Source of the DNA: Planotetraspora phitsanulokensis | GTDB taxonomy: Bacteria; Actinomycetota; Actinomycetes; Streptosporangiales; Streptosporangiaceae | DNA length: 57,835 nt | Reading direction: 5' to 3' | Assembly (NCBI RefSeq): GCF_016863295.1 | Contig: NZ_BOOP01000055.1 | Coordinates: 1-57,835 of the forward strand | In this document: positions 2,682 to 35,423 of the stretch, piece after piece | Position numbering within the stretch: the first letter of the stretch is position 1 | Layout of the letters: each line of letters opens with the position of its first letter | Made by a program: the position numbers and the translations under genes | The notes under the pieces: model-generated | What the model saw: only the letters and a program-made list of their open reading frames with translations | Database searches by the model: none | Told to the model about the DNA's origin: nothing

Positions 2682-3767
2682 ATGCGGTACGTGCTGGTGG
2701 CGGGAGCAGCGGTTCTCGGGTTGACGGGGGTGGTGGTCGTCGCGCCGCCCGCCGGGGCGGGATCGGCGACTCAGGCCCCGCCGGTGTGGAAGCTGGTCAA
2801 GGTCAACACCCTGCCGAGGGACGACGTGCTCAACGACGTGGCCACGCTGAAGAACGGCTCGGTCTGGGCGGCGGGCCACCGGGTGGTGAACGGCAAGGTG
2901 AAGGGCATCGTCGAGCGGTTCGACGGCAAGAAGTGGACGCTGCTGCCCGGCGTGCCGGCGCTCGATCTGACGGCCATAGCCGCGAGTTCGCCGAAGAGCG
3001 TGTGGGTGTTCGGGCAGGGCAAGGCGTCCCGGTGGAACGGGAAGTCCTGGACCACCCGGTCGCTGGGCAAGCGGTTCGCGACCGCCGACGCCGACGCGCT
3101 GAACGTGAAGGACGTCTGGGCCGTCGGGGCCCAGATGGCCTCCGCCCGGCACTGGAACGGCACGTCCTGGCGCAGCTTCGCGCTCCCCGGTCAGGCGAGT
3201 GCGGTCGACATCTACAAGGCGCGCGACGTCTGGGCCGCGGGCCTGAACGGGTCACAACCGTCGATCATGCGGTGGAGAGGGGGTTCCTCGTGGAAACCCG
3301 TCCCCCTTCCCCCGATTGCGCTGCCCTCGCCTGACGCGGAGGTGGGCTTCCGGGACATCCTGGTGATCGGGCCCAAGAACGTCTGGGCGGTCGGCGGGAT
3401 CAGCTGGGAGGGGGCGAACGAGGAGGGTGACGACGTCACGTTCAGCCGTACGCTTCTCATGCACTGGAACGGCACGAAGTGGACGACGATGGTGGGTAAG
3501 ACCGGCGGCCAGCCGTACACCCAGGTGACGCCCGACGGCACGGGTGGGGTCTGGATCGTGCAGGGTGCGTGGAACGCCACGTTGTGGCATGTCACCGGGT
3601 CGGGGTGGAAGAGCACGCCGCTGCCGCGCAAGCCGGGGACGGACGCCGTGTTGTCGTCCATCGCGCGGATACCGGGCACGGCCACGACGTGGGGCGCGGG
3701 GTTCACGGTGCCGCAGGGTGATCCCGATGATCCGTCCGCGAACGGGGCGTTCTGGCGGGCCCGCTGA
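2682..3767 (+). CDS. Secreted repeat protein, probable beta-propeller
   Basis: A 361-residue exported protein. Residues 1-26 form a Sec signal peptide (Arg near the start, hydrophobic core, AGAG cleavage region). The mature part carries repeated units built around SVWAAG, SVWVFG, DVWAVG, DVWAAG, NVWAVG and GVWIVQ, each followed by W-N-G-x-x-W segments, as in bacterial beta-propeller repeats. GGGAGG lies 6 nt before the ATG. No catalytic motif is seen, so a binding or surface role is an inference. It is monocistronic, with a promoter-bearing gap to the MerR gene downstream. Confidence 0.75.
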   Translation: MRYVLVAGAAVLGLTGVVVVAPPAGAGSATQAPPVWKLVKVNTLPRDDVLNDVATLKNGSVWAAGHRVVNGKVKGIVERFDGKKWTLLPGVPALDLTAIAASSPKSVWVFGQGKASRWNGKSWTTRSLGKRFATADADALNVKDVWAVGAQMASARHWNGTSWRSFALPGQASAVDIYKARDVWAAGLNGSQPSIMRWRGGSSWKPVPLPPIALPSPDAEVGFRDILVIGPKNVWAVGGISWEGANEEGDDVTFSRTLLMHWNGTKWTTMVGKTGGQPYTQVTPDGTGGVWIVQGAWNATLWHVTGSGWKSTPLPRKPGTDAVLSSIARIPGTATTWGAGFTVPQGDPDDPSANGAFWRAR

Positions 3768-15450: not shown

Positions 15451-16215
15451 ATGGAAAGTGTCGACCGGATCCGCGCCATCATGAACGAGCTGCGGACCTC
15501 CGACAGCGTCTCGGTGGCCGAGCTCGCCGCTCTGCACGGCGTCTCGGAGATGACCATCCGCCGCGACCTCGACGAGCTGGCGCAGCAGGGCGTGGTGCGG
15601 CGGGTCCGCGGAGGCGCGCTCAGCCTGCTCCTGCGCGGCGAGGAACCGCCCTTCGGCGTCCGCGAGCGCGAGGCGGTCGCCGCCAAACAGCGGATCGGCG
15701 CGGAGGTGGCGAGCCTGATCGCGGACGGCGAGGCCGTCCTGCTCGACGGCGGCACGACCGTGCTCGAGGTCGCCAGGGCGATACACGATCGCCGGCTCAC
15801 GGTGCTTCCGCTCGCCCTGCAGGCGACACAGGAGCTCGCCGGGGCTCCGCGGATCCGCCTCGTCCTTCCCGGCGGCGAGGTCCGGCACGGCGAGATGAAC
15901 TTCGTCGGCCCGCTGACCGAGGCCTCCATCAGGTCGTTGCGGTTCGACACCGCGGTCATCGGCTGCTGCGGCCTGTCCGCCGAGCACGGCCTGACCGCCC
16001 ACGACCTGCCGGAAGTCTCGATCAAACAGACCGCGATCGCCTCCGCCCGCCGCGTCGTGGTGGCCTGCGACTCGGGGAAGTTCTCCCGCACGGCGTTCGG
16101 CTCGGTCTGCGCGCTCGACAGGCTGGACGTGGTCGTCACCGACGAGGGCATCCCCCAGGAGCAGCACGACGCCCTGACCGCCGCCGGCGTCACCGTCCGC
16201 ATCCCCTCCCCGTGA
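15451..16215 (+). CDS. DeoR/GlpR-family transcriptional regulator
   Basis: A 254-residue repressor. The DeoR helix-turn-helix spans about 5-58 (SVAELAALHGVSEMTIRRDL, with VVRRVRGGA closing the wing). The DeoR C-terminal sensor, a phosphosugar-isomerase-like fold, covers about 75-235 and includes LLDGGTTVLEVAR and FVGPLTEASIR. Such proteins respond to a phosphorylated sugar or related metabolite. No sugar catabolic genes adjoin it; the downstream MFS gene is the likeliest local target. Confidence 0.9.
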   Translation: MESVDRIRAIMNELRTSDSVSVAELAALHGVSEMTIRRDLDELAQQGVVRRVRGGALSLLLRGEEPPFGVREREAVAAKQRIGAEVASLIADGEAVLLDGGTTVLEVARAIHDRRLTVLPLALQATQELAGAPRIRLVLPGGEVRHGEMNFVGPLTEASIRSLRFDTAVIGCCGLSAEHGLTAHDLPEVSIKQTAIASARRVVVACDSGKFSRTAFGSVCALDRLDVVVTDEGIPQEQHDALTAAGVTVRIPSP

Positions 16216-16261
16216 CCACGCCCGCGCCCCCTCCCGCGTGACCGCGTGTGACCCCTCCCGC

Positions 16262-16380
16262 GTGATCATGCGCACGTTCGTGAGGACCCCGTCTCACCTG
16301 CGCCTTCCCGATTCGTGACCATGCACGGATTCGGCCGCATCACCGCTCACCTGGCCGAACCCTCTCCGTGATCATGCCTT
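16262..16380 (+). repeat. 53-bp periodic repeat, array A (three direct units)
   Basis: Units begin at 16262 (GTGATCATGCGCACGTTCG), 16315 (GTGACCATGCACGGATTCG) and 16368 (GTGATCATGC, then diverges), exactly 53 bp apart. In the first two units CACCTGC and CACCTGG occur at unit positions 34-40. The third unit merges into the 5' region of the MFS gene. The same design recurs at 33699-33998. Confidence 0.8.
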
Positions 16381-16403: not shown

Positions 16404-17642
16404 ATGGCGCTACTCGCCACCGCCCGGCCGTCCCTGCGGCGCGCCCGCCTCGCCGTCTTCGGACTGTTCCTGCTGGCCGGGATGGCCATCGGCACCTGGA
16501 CGGCCCGCATCCCGGCCATCAAGCACGACCTCGCTCTCTCGGACGGGCGCCTGAGCCTGGCGCTGCTCGGCATCGCGGCGGGCGCCATCACCGGGATGCT
16601 GGTCATCGGCCGTCTCGTCGACCGGTACGGCAGCGACCGCGTCATGATCCCGGCGGCGCTCGCCCAGGGAGCCGTCCTGGTGCTCCCGGCCCTCGCCCCC
16701 GACCTGCCGGTGCTCGCGCTGTCCCTGTTCCTGTTCGGCGTCGTCAACGGCACACTCGACGTCTCGATGAACGCCAACGCCGTCACCGTCGAACGCGCGT
16801 ACGGCCGGCCGATCATGTCGGCCTTCCACGCCGTGTTCAGCGTGGGCGGCTTCGCCGGGTCGGCGCTGGGCGGGGTGTTCGCAAGCGCCGACGTGGACCC
16901 GGCCGTCACCTTCGCGGTCGCCGGGGCGCTCATCCTGGTCGTCGCGGTGCTGTCGGCCCGCTGGGCCCTGCGCGACACCCCGCACCCCCGGGAGCCGGAG
17001 ACCCCCGCAACCGGCATCGCCGATCGGACCGCCGCGCCCCGGCGCCGGTTGCCGCAAGGCGCCTTCTTCCTCGGCGTGCTGGCCTTCTGCGGTCTGATCG
17101 GCGAGGGAGCCTCAGCCGACTGGAGCTCGGTCTACCTCCACGACGATCTCGGCTCCTCCCCCGGATTCGCGGCCGCCGCGTTCGCCGCCTTCTCGGTCAT
17201 GATGACCGCCGGGCGCTTCGCCGGCGACCGGCTCGCCGCCCGGCTGGGCCCGGTGGCCCTGGTGCGCGGATGCGGTCTGCTCGGCGCCGCCGGCCTCGCG
17301 GTCAACCTCCTCATCGGCACACCGGTCGCCGGGGTCGTCGGGTTCGCGCTGTTCGGCGCGGGACTTTCCTGCGTCATCCCGCAGGTCTTCTCCGCCGCCG
17401 GGCACCGCGACCCCGCGCAGTCCGGGCGCGCGCTCGCGGTGGTGGCGAGCCTCGGATACACCGGTTTCCTCGCCGGGCCGGTGATCATCGGCGCCCTCGC
17501 GGAACTCGTGACGCTGCCGAGGGCCCTGCTGATCCCCGCCCTGCTCACGCTTCTCGTCGCCCTGGCCGCCCCCGCCGTACGGCCGGCGCGAACCGGTGGA
17601 ACGGACGCCGCCGCCGTGCCCACTCAGGCGAACTGGTCGTAG
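16404..17642 (+). CDS. MFS transporter
   Basis: A 412-residue integral membrane permease with about 12 hydrophobic helices and a central loop at about 195-225. The conserved inter-helix loop GRLVDRYGSDR follows TM2, as in MFS proteins. It resembles the YbjJ-like sugar/drug group, but the substrate is not predictable. Start ATG 16404 is chosen because GGAG lies 9 nt upstream; an in-frame GTG at 16368 and ATG at 16374 fall inside the repeat array. Its 3' end overlaps the convergent TauE/SafE gene by 19 bp. Confidence 0.85.
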   Translation: MALLATARPSLRRARLAVFGLFLLAGMAIGTWTARIPAIKHDLALSDGRLSLALLGIAAGAITGMLVIGRLVDRYGSDRVMIPAALAQGAVLVLPALAPDLPVLALSLFLFGVVNGTLDVSMNANAVTVERAYGRPIMSAFHAVFSVGGFAGSALGGVFASADVDPAVTFAVAGALILVVAVLSARWALRDTPHPREPETPATGIADRTAAPRRRLPQGAFFLGVLAFCGLIGEGASADWSSVYLHDDLGSSPGFAAAAFAAFSVMMTAGRFAGDRLAARLGPVALVRGCGLLGAAGLAVNLLIGTPVAGVVGFALFGAGLSCVIPQVFSAAGHRDPAQSGRALAVVASLGYTGFLAGPVIIGALAELVTLPRALLIPALLTLLVALAAPAVRPARTGGTDAAAVPTQANWS

Positions 17643-33648: not shown

Positions 33649-33698
33649 AGGCCGCCAGATTCTACGTCGCGTGTCCCCCCACCCGTCAGCCAAGGGGC

Positions 33699-33998
33699 GT
33701 GATCATGCACAGATTCGGAAGGAGGGGGTGTGACCTGCGACTTCCCCAGACGTGATCATGCACAGATTCGTGATCAACGCCTCCGACCTGCTGCGATTCT
33801 ATTCGTGATCTGGCACGCCGCGACGCACTACATGATCGCCTAGGGCGGAGCCGCAGGAAGGGCCGCACAACCACGAAACCGTGCAGGATCGCGTACGGCG
33901 AAGCCGCAGGTGGGGCCATGAAAGCACGAATGTGTGCATGATCACGAAACGTGAAACGGCTGGTCGGCGGCGCTTTTACCGAACCCGTGCATGATCAC
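33699..33998. repeat. 53-bp periodic repeat, array B (direct then inverted units)
   Basis: Direct anchors are at 33699 and 33752 (both GTGATCATGCACAGATTCG) and 33805 (GTGATCTGGCAC). Inverted anchors CATGATCGC, CAGGATCGC, CATGATCAC and CATGATCAC begin at 33831, 33884, 33937 and 33990. Every same-orientation step is exactly 53 bp. GACCTGC is at unit positions 34-40 in both full direct units. Its complement (GCAGGTG, GCAGGAA, GCTGGTC) is in the mirrored place in the inverted ones. The array fills the gap between helR and the ROK operon promoter. Confidence 0.85.
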
Positions 33999-34062
33999 GG
34001 CGGAGGGGCAACGAATAAGGGGCGATTACGGTCACGAGTCGATTTCGAGGACTTACGGGGCC

Positions 34063-34101: not shown

Positions 34102-34122
34102 AGTTAGGAAACTTTCCTAACT
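34102..34122. promoter_or_regulatory. ROK-family operator
   Basis: AGTTAGGAAA-C-TTTCCTAACT is a perfect 10-bp inverted repeat with a 1-bp centre. It matches the TTAGGAAA/TTTCCTAA palindrome known for actinobacterial ROK repressors. Lying at the predicted transcription start, it would block the promoter when bound. Confidence 0.85.
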
Positions 34123-34142
34123 CGCCGCGGAAGGACGTGCCG

Positions 34143-35423
34143 TTGAGCCAGCCCACGCCTGGGACGCCGAGCCTTCTGCGCGCCATCAACGACCGCGCCG
34201 CGCTGATGGTCCTCCTCGAGCGGGGGCCCCTCACCCGTCCCGAGCTCGGCGCGCTGACCGGCCTGTCCAAGCCGACCGCCTCCCAGTTGCTGGCACGCCT
34301 TCAGGAGGCGGGCCTCGTCGTCCTCGACGGCATCCGTGAAGGGCTTCCCGGCCGCACCGCCGAGCTGTACCGGATCAACCCCCGCGCGGCGCACGTGGCC
34401 GCCCTGGACGTCACCCCCGGCCGGATCGACGTCGCCCTGGCCGACATCACCGGCACGGTCGTCGCCGAGCACCGGCTGGCAACCCCCGGCCGCACCGCGG
34501 GCGACGTCGTCGAGAGGGTTCGCGACTCGCTCGCGGGGGCATGCGCGGACGCTCAACTCGACCTCGCGGCCCTCAGCCGGGTGGTGATCGGCATCGGGGG
34601 CGCGATCGACCCCTCGACCGGACGGCTGGGCTACGCCGCGCACATCCCCGGCTGGCACATCCCCGACCTCGTCGGCACCCTGCGCGACGGGATCGGCGTG
34701 CCGGTCGACATCGAGAACGACGTGAACCTGGTGGCGCAGGCCGAGCAGGCCCGCGGGGCCGCCCAGGGCCACCAGGACTACGTGCTGCTGTGGGCCGACG
34801 AGGGCCTCGGCTCCGCCCTGGTGCTCGGCGGCAGGCTGCACCGGGGCGCCACGGGCGGGGCCGGCGAGGTCGGATACATGCCGGTCCTCGGGGCGCCGAT
34901 CGCCCGGGACGTCGGCAAGCGGGCCGACCACGGCTTCCAGGCCCTTTCCGGTGGCCCCGCCGTACTGAGGATCCTGCGGGCGCACGGGCTGCGCGGGGCG
35001 ACACCCCCCGCGGCCGTGCGGAACGCGGTGAAGGCGGTCGAGGGCGGCGGCGCGCAGGCCGAGAAGGCACGTGAGGCGCTGCGCGAGCTCGCCGGCCGCC
35101 TCGCGGTCGGCCTGGCCGCGATCACGGCTGTCGTCGACCCCGAGATCGTCGTCCTGTCGGGCGGCGTGCTGCTGTCGGGCGGCGAGATCCTGCGCGAGCT
35201 CATCGAGCAGGAGCTGCACGCCCTGACCATCCCCCGGCCGCCTCTGCGGCTGTCCACCGTGGAGGGCAACCCCGTCCTCGCCGGTGCCCTCGACCTCGCC
35301 CTCGGCATCGCCAGAGACGAGACCTTCGGGGCGGTCCACCGTCCCGAGACAACTTCCCGGCGCGAAGCGCACGACCGGACCCGCGGCGAGCACGACCGCA
35401 GGCACCCATCCATCCCCTCCTGA
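34143..35423 (+). CDS. ROK-family transcriptional regulator
   Basis: A 426-residue repressor. A MarR-like winged helix (about 12-75: LTRPELGALTGLSKPTASQLL) is joined to a ROK sugar-binding/kinase-like fold (about 85-400) that includes VVIGIGGAIDPSTG and DIENDVNLVAQ. Start TTG 34143 is chosen because GGAAGGA lies 7 nt upstream; GTG 34137 would leave no room for it. The kinase-type Cys-rich zinc motif common in ROK proteins is not evident. It leads the sugar operon, with only 29 bp to the binding-protein gene, and has a ROK operator at its own promoter. Confidence 0.9.
   Translation: MSQPTPGTPSLLRAINDRAALMVLLERGPLTRPELGALTGLSKPTASQLLARLQEAGLVVLDGIREGLPGRTAELYRINPRAAHVAALDVTPGRIDVALADITGTVVAEHRLATPGRTAGDVVERVRDSLAGACADAQLDLAALSRVVIGIGGAIDPSTGRLGYAAHIPGWHIPDLVGTLRDGIGVPVDIENDVNLVAQAEQARGAAQGHQDYVLLWADEGLGSALVLGGRLHRGATGGAGEVGYMPVLGAPIARDVGKRADHGFQALSGGPAVLRILRAHGLRGATPPAAVRNAVKAVEGGGAQAEKAREALRELAGRLAVGLAAITAVVDPEIVVLSGGVLLSGGEILRELIEQELHALTIPRPPLRLSTVEGNPVLAGALDLALGIARDETFGAVHRPETTSRREAHDRTRGEHDRRHPSIPS

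What the first reader, a model, noticed from the sequence alone, without database searches (positions are those of the whole stretch)
33699..33998. Orientation-switching repeat array with an exact 53-bp period
Three direct anchors (33699, 33752, 33805) and four inverted anchors (33831, 33884, 33937, 33990) are each spaced exactly 53 bp. The unit has a 19-bp box near GTGATCATGCACAGATTCG and a second box, SACCTGC, at unit positions 34-40; the complement is found at the mirrored place in inverted units. Sequence between boxes varies. 53 bp equals about five turns of DNA, so all boxes would lie on one face of the helix. This fits a cooperative DNA-binding protein or a nucleoid or segregation site better than random duplication. 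It lies between helR and a sugar operon. I know of no named element of this design.
Basis: partly seen in the sequence, partly recalled or inferred. Interest (0 to 1): 0.75.

Follow-up and report, generated by a model that had tools for sequence, protein, structure and literature searches.

The report
Genome-wide 53-bp convergent intergenic arrays
The repeat between two genes in this soil bacterium is one of many similar modular DNA arrays spread between genes over its chromosome and kept by selection; they look like docking sites for a protein that has not been identified.

Summary
The 12-bp core occurs 231 times in the 9.17-Mb genome (reversed control 0). Of 66 genome-wide core pairs found with a free gap, 56 have a period of exactly 53 bp. 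The genus is Planotetraspora.

The anatomy is stricter than reported. An arm is core-[TTCG-N-GACCTGC-N]-core-[...]-core: n modules of 53 bp bounded by n+1 cores, the innermost core nearly always bare. Arms point inward. The window element (33698-33999) has 2+3 modules around the commonest centre, two bare cores 13 bp apart.

Array sites are shared between species. Core, TTCG and GACCTGC resist change (3, 3 and 9% mismatch; spacers 21-24%). Elements lie between genes, typically about 16 bp past a stop codon. In one species the base after the core differs in all 84 modules listed.

Variants occur in a minority of other actinobacteria, including two distant families. RAYT-type transposase, Tas (Nop) and target-site duplications were not found; RNA covariation is not supported.

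Best reading: cooperative binding arrays of an unidentified, co-evolving DNA-binding factor. This is inferred; no factor was found. Main rival: a new REP/BIME-like repeat family with an unknown mobiliser.

The parts
33698..33750 (+). plus arm, outer module 1 (core CGTGATCATGCA, TTCG, GACCTGC)
33751..33803 (+). plus arm, module 2
   Evidence: exact 53-bp step
33804..33815 (+). plus arm, bare inner core (CGTGATCTGGCA; no TTCG, no second box)
   Evidence: rule from 179 arms
33816..33828 (.). 13-bp centre between the two bare cores
   Evidence: same 37-bp core-to-core centre in 18 of 56 two-armed elements
33829..33840 (-). minus arm, bare inner core (GGCGATCATGTA, 3 mismatches)
   Evidence: intact at the same place in P. 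silvatica and P. mira
33841..33893 (-). minus arm, innermost module
33894..33946 (-). minus arm, middle module
33947..33999 (-). minus arm, outer module
16261..16313 (+). second element of the window (one-armed), module 1
16314..16366 (+). second element, module 2
   Evidence: orthologous array in P. kaengkrachanensis L072
16367..16378 (+). second element, bare inner core
34137..35423 (+). neighbour: ROK-family regulator; its 5' end faces the array
15451..16215 (+). neighbour of the second element: DeoR-family regulator, stop codon 46 bp before the first core
16404..17642 (+). neighbour of the second element: MFS transporter

Best explanation
The element is one of many chromosomal binding arrays for a sequence-specific DNA-binding factor that is not yet identified. 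SHOWN: arms are made of 53-bp modules (TTCG, 12-13 bp spacer, GACCTGC, spacer) set between shared 12-bp cores; arms point inward; positions are kept between species; core, TTCG and GACCTGC are constrained while spacers drift; unit length is constrained; arrays lie between genes; in one species the base after the core is changed in every module seen. INFERRED: the factor contacts core, TTCG and GACCTGC over about five helical turns, neighbouring molecules meet on a shared core (hence n+1 cores and a bare last core), so it loads as an oriented chain from the gene-side edge towards the middle of the intergenic region. In two-armed elements two chains meet at the centre. Likely consequence (speculative): a compact nucleoprotein block at gene boundaries that insulates neighbouring transcription units or organises the nucleoid. 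Its specificity has shifted at least once, with all arrays following.
For: 231 cores, reversed control 0; 56 of 66 pairs at exactly 53 bp. n+1 cores: in 179 arms TTCG at 97-100% of inner positions but 9-13% of last cores, second box 78-98% versus 0-2%; in stretches not chosen by pattern, 78 of 88 non-last cores have TTC(G) and 62 of 88 the second box, last cores 6 of 40 and 0 of 40. Constraint: 74 orthologous module pairs, mismatch core 0.027, TTCG 0.027, GACCTGC 0.087, spacers 0.21-0.24. Of 108 candidate orthologous pairs 106 are 53/53. Inward arms: 48 '><', 30 '>', 22 '<', 2 '><><', 0 '<>' of 102. 4 of 713 cores inside predicted genes. Shift: base after core C 62, T 4, G 0 in own genome, G 84 of 84 listed in G001; the helR-ROK site itself carries the variant in G001. 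No covariation for the candidate stem and no stacked helix of note.
Against: No factor was found and no binding or expression data exist. Distribution is patchy even within one genus (g69: G111, G115, G117, G120, G121 with 15-31 module matches; G110, G112, G123 with none; G118 and G119 with one weak match), odd for a core nucleoid function. In G371 and G421 the same core occurs with other 3' halves and irregular spacing, so a strict module is not general. Direct-repeat cores can pair with each other as RNA through G-U pairs, and nine one-armed strands fold with z -0.5 to -2.9 (mean about -1.8). Ten of 56 two-armed elements hold a near-identical module in both arms, which points to copying between arms. 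The TTCG figure is partly ascertained: each of the 110 loci was fetched for holding at least one module with TTCG.
Confidence: 0.52

Rival explanations
1. A new REP/BIME/REPIN-like family: short extragenic repeats spread by a transposase in trans, which settle where they do least harm, behind stop codons.
For: Hundreds of copies; almost only extragenic; outer core a median 16 bp from gene 3' ends and 3' ends over-used (113:54 against 287:381); patchy distribution with lineage-specific sequences; hairpin-like single pairs in G028, G078, G421; exact 53-bp unit duplication and whole-unit indels.
Against: Y1 transposase (PF01797), the RAYT signature, is absent at E<=0.001 from 12 of 14 array-bearing genomes tested, and present in 4 of 8 without or nearly without arrays. 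No target-site duplication among 56 elements. Sites are shared between species (59 of 62 comparisons, biased set). Boxes are constrained base by base in place. No GTAG-type head. No exact two-core array in viral contigs.
Confidence: 0.28
2. RNA-level 3' elements: transcribed stem-loops acting as bidirectional terminators or stabilisers behind genes.
For: Preference for 3' ends and convergent gene pairs (31 of 91 arrays against 71 of 436 intergenic regions); perfect hairpins in G078 and G028 and many 40-41-bp-spaced pairs near stops in G421; folding z of one-armed strands mean about -1.8.
Against: 54 of 167 arms abut a 5' end, typically 100 bp away; one-armed arrays are common (52 of 102) and need no hairpin partner; spacers of the two arms are hardly mirrored (0.384 against 0.364 shuffled); candidate stem between the box and GACCTGC shows no covariation (z -0.76 to 0.08) in 371 modules; the window's own centre folds no better than shuffles (z 0.58).
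Confidence: 0.13
3. Dispersed CRISPR- or TIGR-like guide arrays: variable spacers between conserved boxes are the business part.
For: Repeat-spacer-box-spacer layout with n+1 boundary cores, two short variable stretches per module.
Against: No Nop/Tas domain in 22 genomes; spacers drift at 21-24% between orthologues like unconstrained DNA; two to five modules per arm at very many loci instead of one locus. Cas genes were not searched.
Confidence: 0.02

Closest known systems
REP/BIME/REPIN elements with RAYT (TnpA-REP) transposases (PMC2817692: abstract and passages seen; others in listing only)
   Same: Over 100 extragenic copies per genome, combined in larger composite elements, lineage-specific sequences that co-evolve with a genome-specific factor, frequent at gene 3' ends (last point recalled).
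   Different: No GTAG-type head, no RAYT-type gene in most bearers, same-orientation repeats in fixed 53-bp steps with a second box inside, inward arms, bare terminal core, base-by-base constraint in place.
Plasmid centromere arrays such as F sopC (12 direct repeats of 43 bp; recalled, not searched)
   Same: Tandem direct repeats with one conserved protein site per unit and a fixed period near a whole number of turns.
   Different: Hundreds of cores at many chromosomal loci, convergent arms, no partition genes beside the two window elements.
CRISPR and TIGR arrays (TIGR-Tas: PMC12045711, listing only)
   Same: n variable stretches between n+1 conserved boundaries, with a polarity along the array.
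   Different: Spacers are not the conserved or selected part; dispersed; no Tas domain found.
Chromosome-organising site families such as parS, matS or SlmA sites (recalled)
   Same: A short motif repeated over the chromosome and kept between species.
   Different: Those are single palindromic sites; here multi-module arrays with obligatory spacing, confined to intergenic DNA.

Membership tests
REP/REPIN-RAYT | More than 100 short extragenic copies per genome | tested here: met
   231 to 698 exact 12-mers in the five Planotetraspora except G001 with 165 (G001 has 940 of the shared core CGTGATCATGCA); 4 of 713 cores inside predicted genes
REP/REPIN-RAYT | Genome encodes a Y1 (PF01797) RAYT flanked by inverted copies | tested here: not met
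   match in only 2 of 14 array-bearing genomes; none in G000, G002, G003, G004, G105
REP/REPIN-RAYT | GTAG-type head plus imperfect palindrome in each repeat | tested here: not met
   Consensus CGTGATCATGCAC-NNN-TTCG has no GTAG/GTGG head as in the table passages of PMC2817692; the core alone is only quasi-palindromic
BIME | Regularly spaced copies in alternating orientation | tested here: not met
   Same orientation within an arm, arms convergent; in genus g56 alternation does occur
MITE / IS-derived element | Target-site duplication flanking the element | tested here: not met
   56 two-armed elements, 43 offsets x 7 widths, largest excess 8 against 3.8 expected at width 2; nothing at width 4 or more beyond 2 against 0.5
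TIGR-Tas | Nop-domain Tas protein encoded | tested here: not met
   0 of 22 genomes
CRISPR array | cas genes | not tested
   no search was made
Plasmid-type centromere array | Adjacent ParA/ParB-type genes | tested here: not met
   Only for the two window elements: neighbours are helicase, ROK, DeoR and MFS genes; other loci show varied ordinary neighbours by reading of the translations
Plasmid-type centromere array / NAP site | Bound by a specific protein with cooperativity | not testable with these tools
   needs a binding assay
Structured RNA element | Compensatory base changes | tested here: not met
   candidate stem z -0.76 to 0.08; isolated column pair 15-47 at z 3.6 (shuffle maxima 2.5-3.3, one 8.5) without a stacked helix
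Known Rfam family | Match above gathering score in the window | tested here: not met
   0 matches among 4227 families

The most novel reading that the evidence does not exclude
A previously undescribed class of chromosomal element in actinobacteria: oriented multi-module arrays that load chains of an unknown protein from gene edges inward, marking intergenic regions as insulators or nucleoid anchors, with array and protein specificity co-evolving as dialects: a constant core CGTGATCATGCA and a lineage-specific 3' half.
Probability: 0.3. Interest if true: 0.87.

Novelty: new variant of a known kind. Interest (0 to 1): 0.7.

Why it matters
Planotetraspora genomes devote many of their intergenic regions to a strictly built element whose boxes are under selection, and nothing is known of it. 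If the reading is right, there is an undiscovered sequence-specific DNA-organising or regulatory protein, with natural specificity variants (G000 type CAC, G001 type CAG, g69 type CTTGTAG) that make the recognition code directly testable. If the rival is right, it is a REP-like family that spreads without the one transposase so far tied to such repeats. Either outcome is testable with one DNA pull-down.

Tried and rejected
RAYT/IS200 transposase (PF01797): not co-distributed. TIGR-Tas (Nop): 0 of 22 genomes. Arrays in viral contigs: two patterns with exact cores, 0 matches each. Rfam: 0 matches in the window. Autonomous element bracketed by boxes: a 2661-bp bracket shared by G111 and G117 holds ordinary metabolic genes; a 1.8-kb insert in the centre of the P. 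mira array L080 is an unrelated insertion, judged from its ORFs alone. Shared unusual neighbour genes: none seen by reading translations of the loci and of the uncut part. Mirrored arms as a long hairpin: only a marginal excess (0.384 against 0.364, equal to the maximum of 300 shuffles; best module pair between arms 0.564 against 0.507, sd 0.009, caused by 10 of 56 elements with a near-copy). RNA covariation: none that stacks. Literature: by words and by the letters of the core found no description; one search hits are by their titles incidental, and one (PMC5839063, passage seen) is a predicted ArgR site upstream of SCO5864 in S. coelicolor containing CGTGATCATGCAC. That search covers only the held open-licence library.

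Biases to keep in mind. Arms chains were allowed 52-54 bp steps only. One search counts some sites in both directions. Arms of related species are not independent in the Fisher test. Gene calls are my own codon-usage calls. One search scored only 26 candidates a genome, so its counts saturate near 30. In one search only 31 shared intergenic regions were available: arrays in both species 2, in G001 only 1, in neither 28.

Full report
1. The window holds two elements: a two-armed one at 33698-33999 and a one-armed one at 16261-16378. The 12-mer GTGATCATGCAC occurs 231 times in the 9.17-Mb genome and its reversed control 0 times. With the gap between two exact cores left free (28-58 bases) the own genome gives 66 pairs, 56 of them at a period of exactly 53 bp (5 at 52, 2 at 51, 2 at 50, 1 at 46).

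2. Where it is. Contig lengths identify G002, G003 and G004 as P. kaengkrachanensis, P. mira and P. silvatica. The own genome is probably P. thailandica and G001 P. phitsanulokensis; this is inference. Exact 12-mers: own 231, G001 165, G002 652, G003 623, G004 698; 0 to 6 in the other 55 relatives searched.

3. Anatomy. A profile of 382 units with an exact core showed core, TTCG and YGACCTGC. Sorting 179 arms of at least three cores by position gave the rule: TTCG (up to 1 mismatch) stands behind 97-100% of all cores except the last, where it stands behind 9-13%; GACCTGC (up to 2 mismatches) 78-98% against 0-2%; yet the last core itself is conserved, 0.42-0.54 mismatches in 12 (arms of 3, 4 and 5 cores, 177 of the 179). 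In stretches not chosen by pattern, plus the window, the figures are TTC(G) 78 of 88 non-last and 6 of 40 last cores, GACCTGC 62 of 88 and 0 of 40. So n modules lie between n+1 shared cores. In the window: plus arm 2 modules and a bare core at 33804; minus arm 3 modules and a bare core at 33840. The two bare cores are 13 bp apart, which is the commonest centre (18 of 56 two-armed elements).

4. Orientation and place. Of 102 arrays with at least two profile hits 48 are '><', 30 '>', 22 '<', 2 '><><', none '<>'. With a looser core search in unselected contigs a few '<>' clusters appear (2 of 12 in the own contig, 1 of 8 in G001, 1 of 7 in G002, 0 of 13 in G105), some of them from overlapping readings of the near-palindromic core on both strands. 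11 of 496 boxes and 4 of 713 cores fall in predicted genes. Arrays are over-represented between convergent genes (31 of 91 with both neighbours called, against 71 of 436 intergenic regions of at least 100 bp) and under-represented between divergent ones (15 of 91 against 149 of 436). The window element is one of those between divergent genes. The outermost core lies a median 16 bp from a gene 3' end (113 arms) and 100 bp from a 5' end (54 arms); ends facing intergenic regions in general are 287 and 381 (Fisher p 1.3e-8, arms not independent). In 17 rows the core overlaps the neighbouring stop codon (GTGA).

5. Evolution. Arrays sit at the same intergenic places in different species: 59 of 62 comparisons keep at least two boxes (loci selected for arrays, some sites counted twice). 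Seen from the own genome, where the orthologous sites were not selected, 6 of 8 distinct sites keep at least two boxes, 1 a single, 1 none, and 5 of the 6 are shorter than in the other species. Whole 53-bp units are lost or gained, and one P. mira array ends in two identical units. In 74 reciprocal-best orthologous modules, found by spacer similarity, mismatch is 0.027 in the core, 0.027 in TTCG, 0.087 in GACCTGC, 0.225 in the three bases before TTCG and 0.21-0.24 in spacers; 106 of 108 candidate pairs are 53/53 in length. This is the signature of selection on boxes and spacing, with the caveat that the core and partly TTCG were used to collect the loci; GACCTGC was not.

6. A dialect switch. 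In the own genome the base after the core is C in 62, T in 4 and G in 0 of 66 modules; in G001 it is G in all 84 modules listed of 592. The helR-ROK site carries an array in G002, G003, P. silvatica and G001, and in G001 all six non-terminal boxes are of the CAG type. No core within two mismatches is found at that site in G105. The same sites bearing different letters in different species is what a changed trans-acting factor would cause; copying between arrays would also do it.

7. Wider distribution. The core CGTGATCATGCA is enriched in 16 of 342 genomes of the order (17 to 940 copies; seven genera), all others 0-9. A sequence-only model of 61 modules finds at least 14 matches in 13 of 200 genomes (5 of 45 genera), one weak match in 11 and none in 176. 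The 53-bp module is shared by Planotetraspora, G105 and g69; G130 uses 41 bp. Genera g56, g58 and g25 have mainly inverted pairs. In two distant families the core appears 310 and 307 times as a 10-mer (typical genomes about 2-89) with other 3' halves: GTGATCATGCAATCCCGCCACCC in G371 and CGTGATCATGCASRTCCTGGG in G421, with irregular spacing and, for G421, pairs 40-41 bp apart near stops. A genus-mate of G421, G384, has 11.

8. Mechanism. Independent spacers (adjacent modules 0.418 and non-adjacent ones 0.377 identical against 0.360 at random), fixed length, several short constrained boxes and a preference for no particular gene function point to recognition of double-stranded DNA. RNA is not excluded: cores in direct repeat can pair through G-U, and nine one-armed strands fold somewhat better than shuffles. 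But covariation is lacking and the window's centre folds no better than shuffles. A RAYT-type mobiliser is not supported, target-site duplications are absent, and Tas is absent. I therefore rank a cooperative DNA-binding factor first, an unknown REP-like system second.

9. What is known. No description was found in the searches made, which cover open-licence papers only. REP/BIME elements are the nearest named kind (PMC2817692, abstract and passages); three of their defining features were tested and not met. I therefore call it a new variant of the broad kind 'dispersed extragenic repeat', with an architecture that I could not match to any named family.

Noticed in passing
window 34103-34121: Perfect 19-bp palindrome GTTAGGAAACTTTCCTAAC just upstream of the ROK regulator, a likely ROK operator (inference), separate from the array.
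   Followed up: no
L065 about 2770-2865 (minus strand): Outside one P. kaengkrachanensis arm the core recurs in degenerate form about every 21 bp, as if a two-turn version of the array existed.
   Followed up: no
L080 2300-4115: A 1.8-kb insert with a small excisionase-like ORF splits the array of P. mira between its arms, compared with P. silvatica L058.
   Followed up: partly
L324, L325, L326, L310, L315, L317 (genus g69): In g69 arms the outermost unit is repeatedly CGTGATCTTGTAGTTTGTCGCA while inner units differ, so units seem to have fixed places in the arm.
   Followed up: partly
own genome against G002-G004: Own-genome arrays are shorter and fewer (231 exact 12-mers against 623-698), as if the system were decaying in this species.
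   Followed up: partly
L257, L258 (G078) and L255 (G028): Long near-perfect hairpins built on the same core, for example CTCGCCGTGATCATGCAGTTTT-17 nt-AAAACTGCATGATCACGGCGAG in G028.
   Followed up: no
L178 5514-8362 (G028): A core hairpin lies between two near-identical XRE-type regulator genes in tandem.
   Followed up: no
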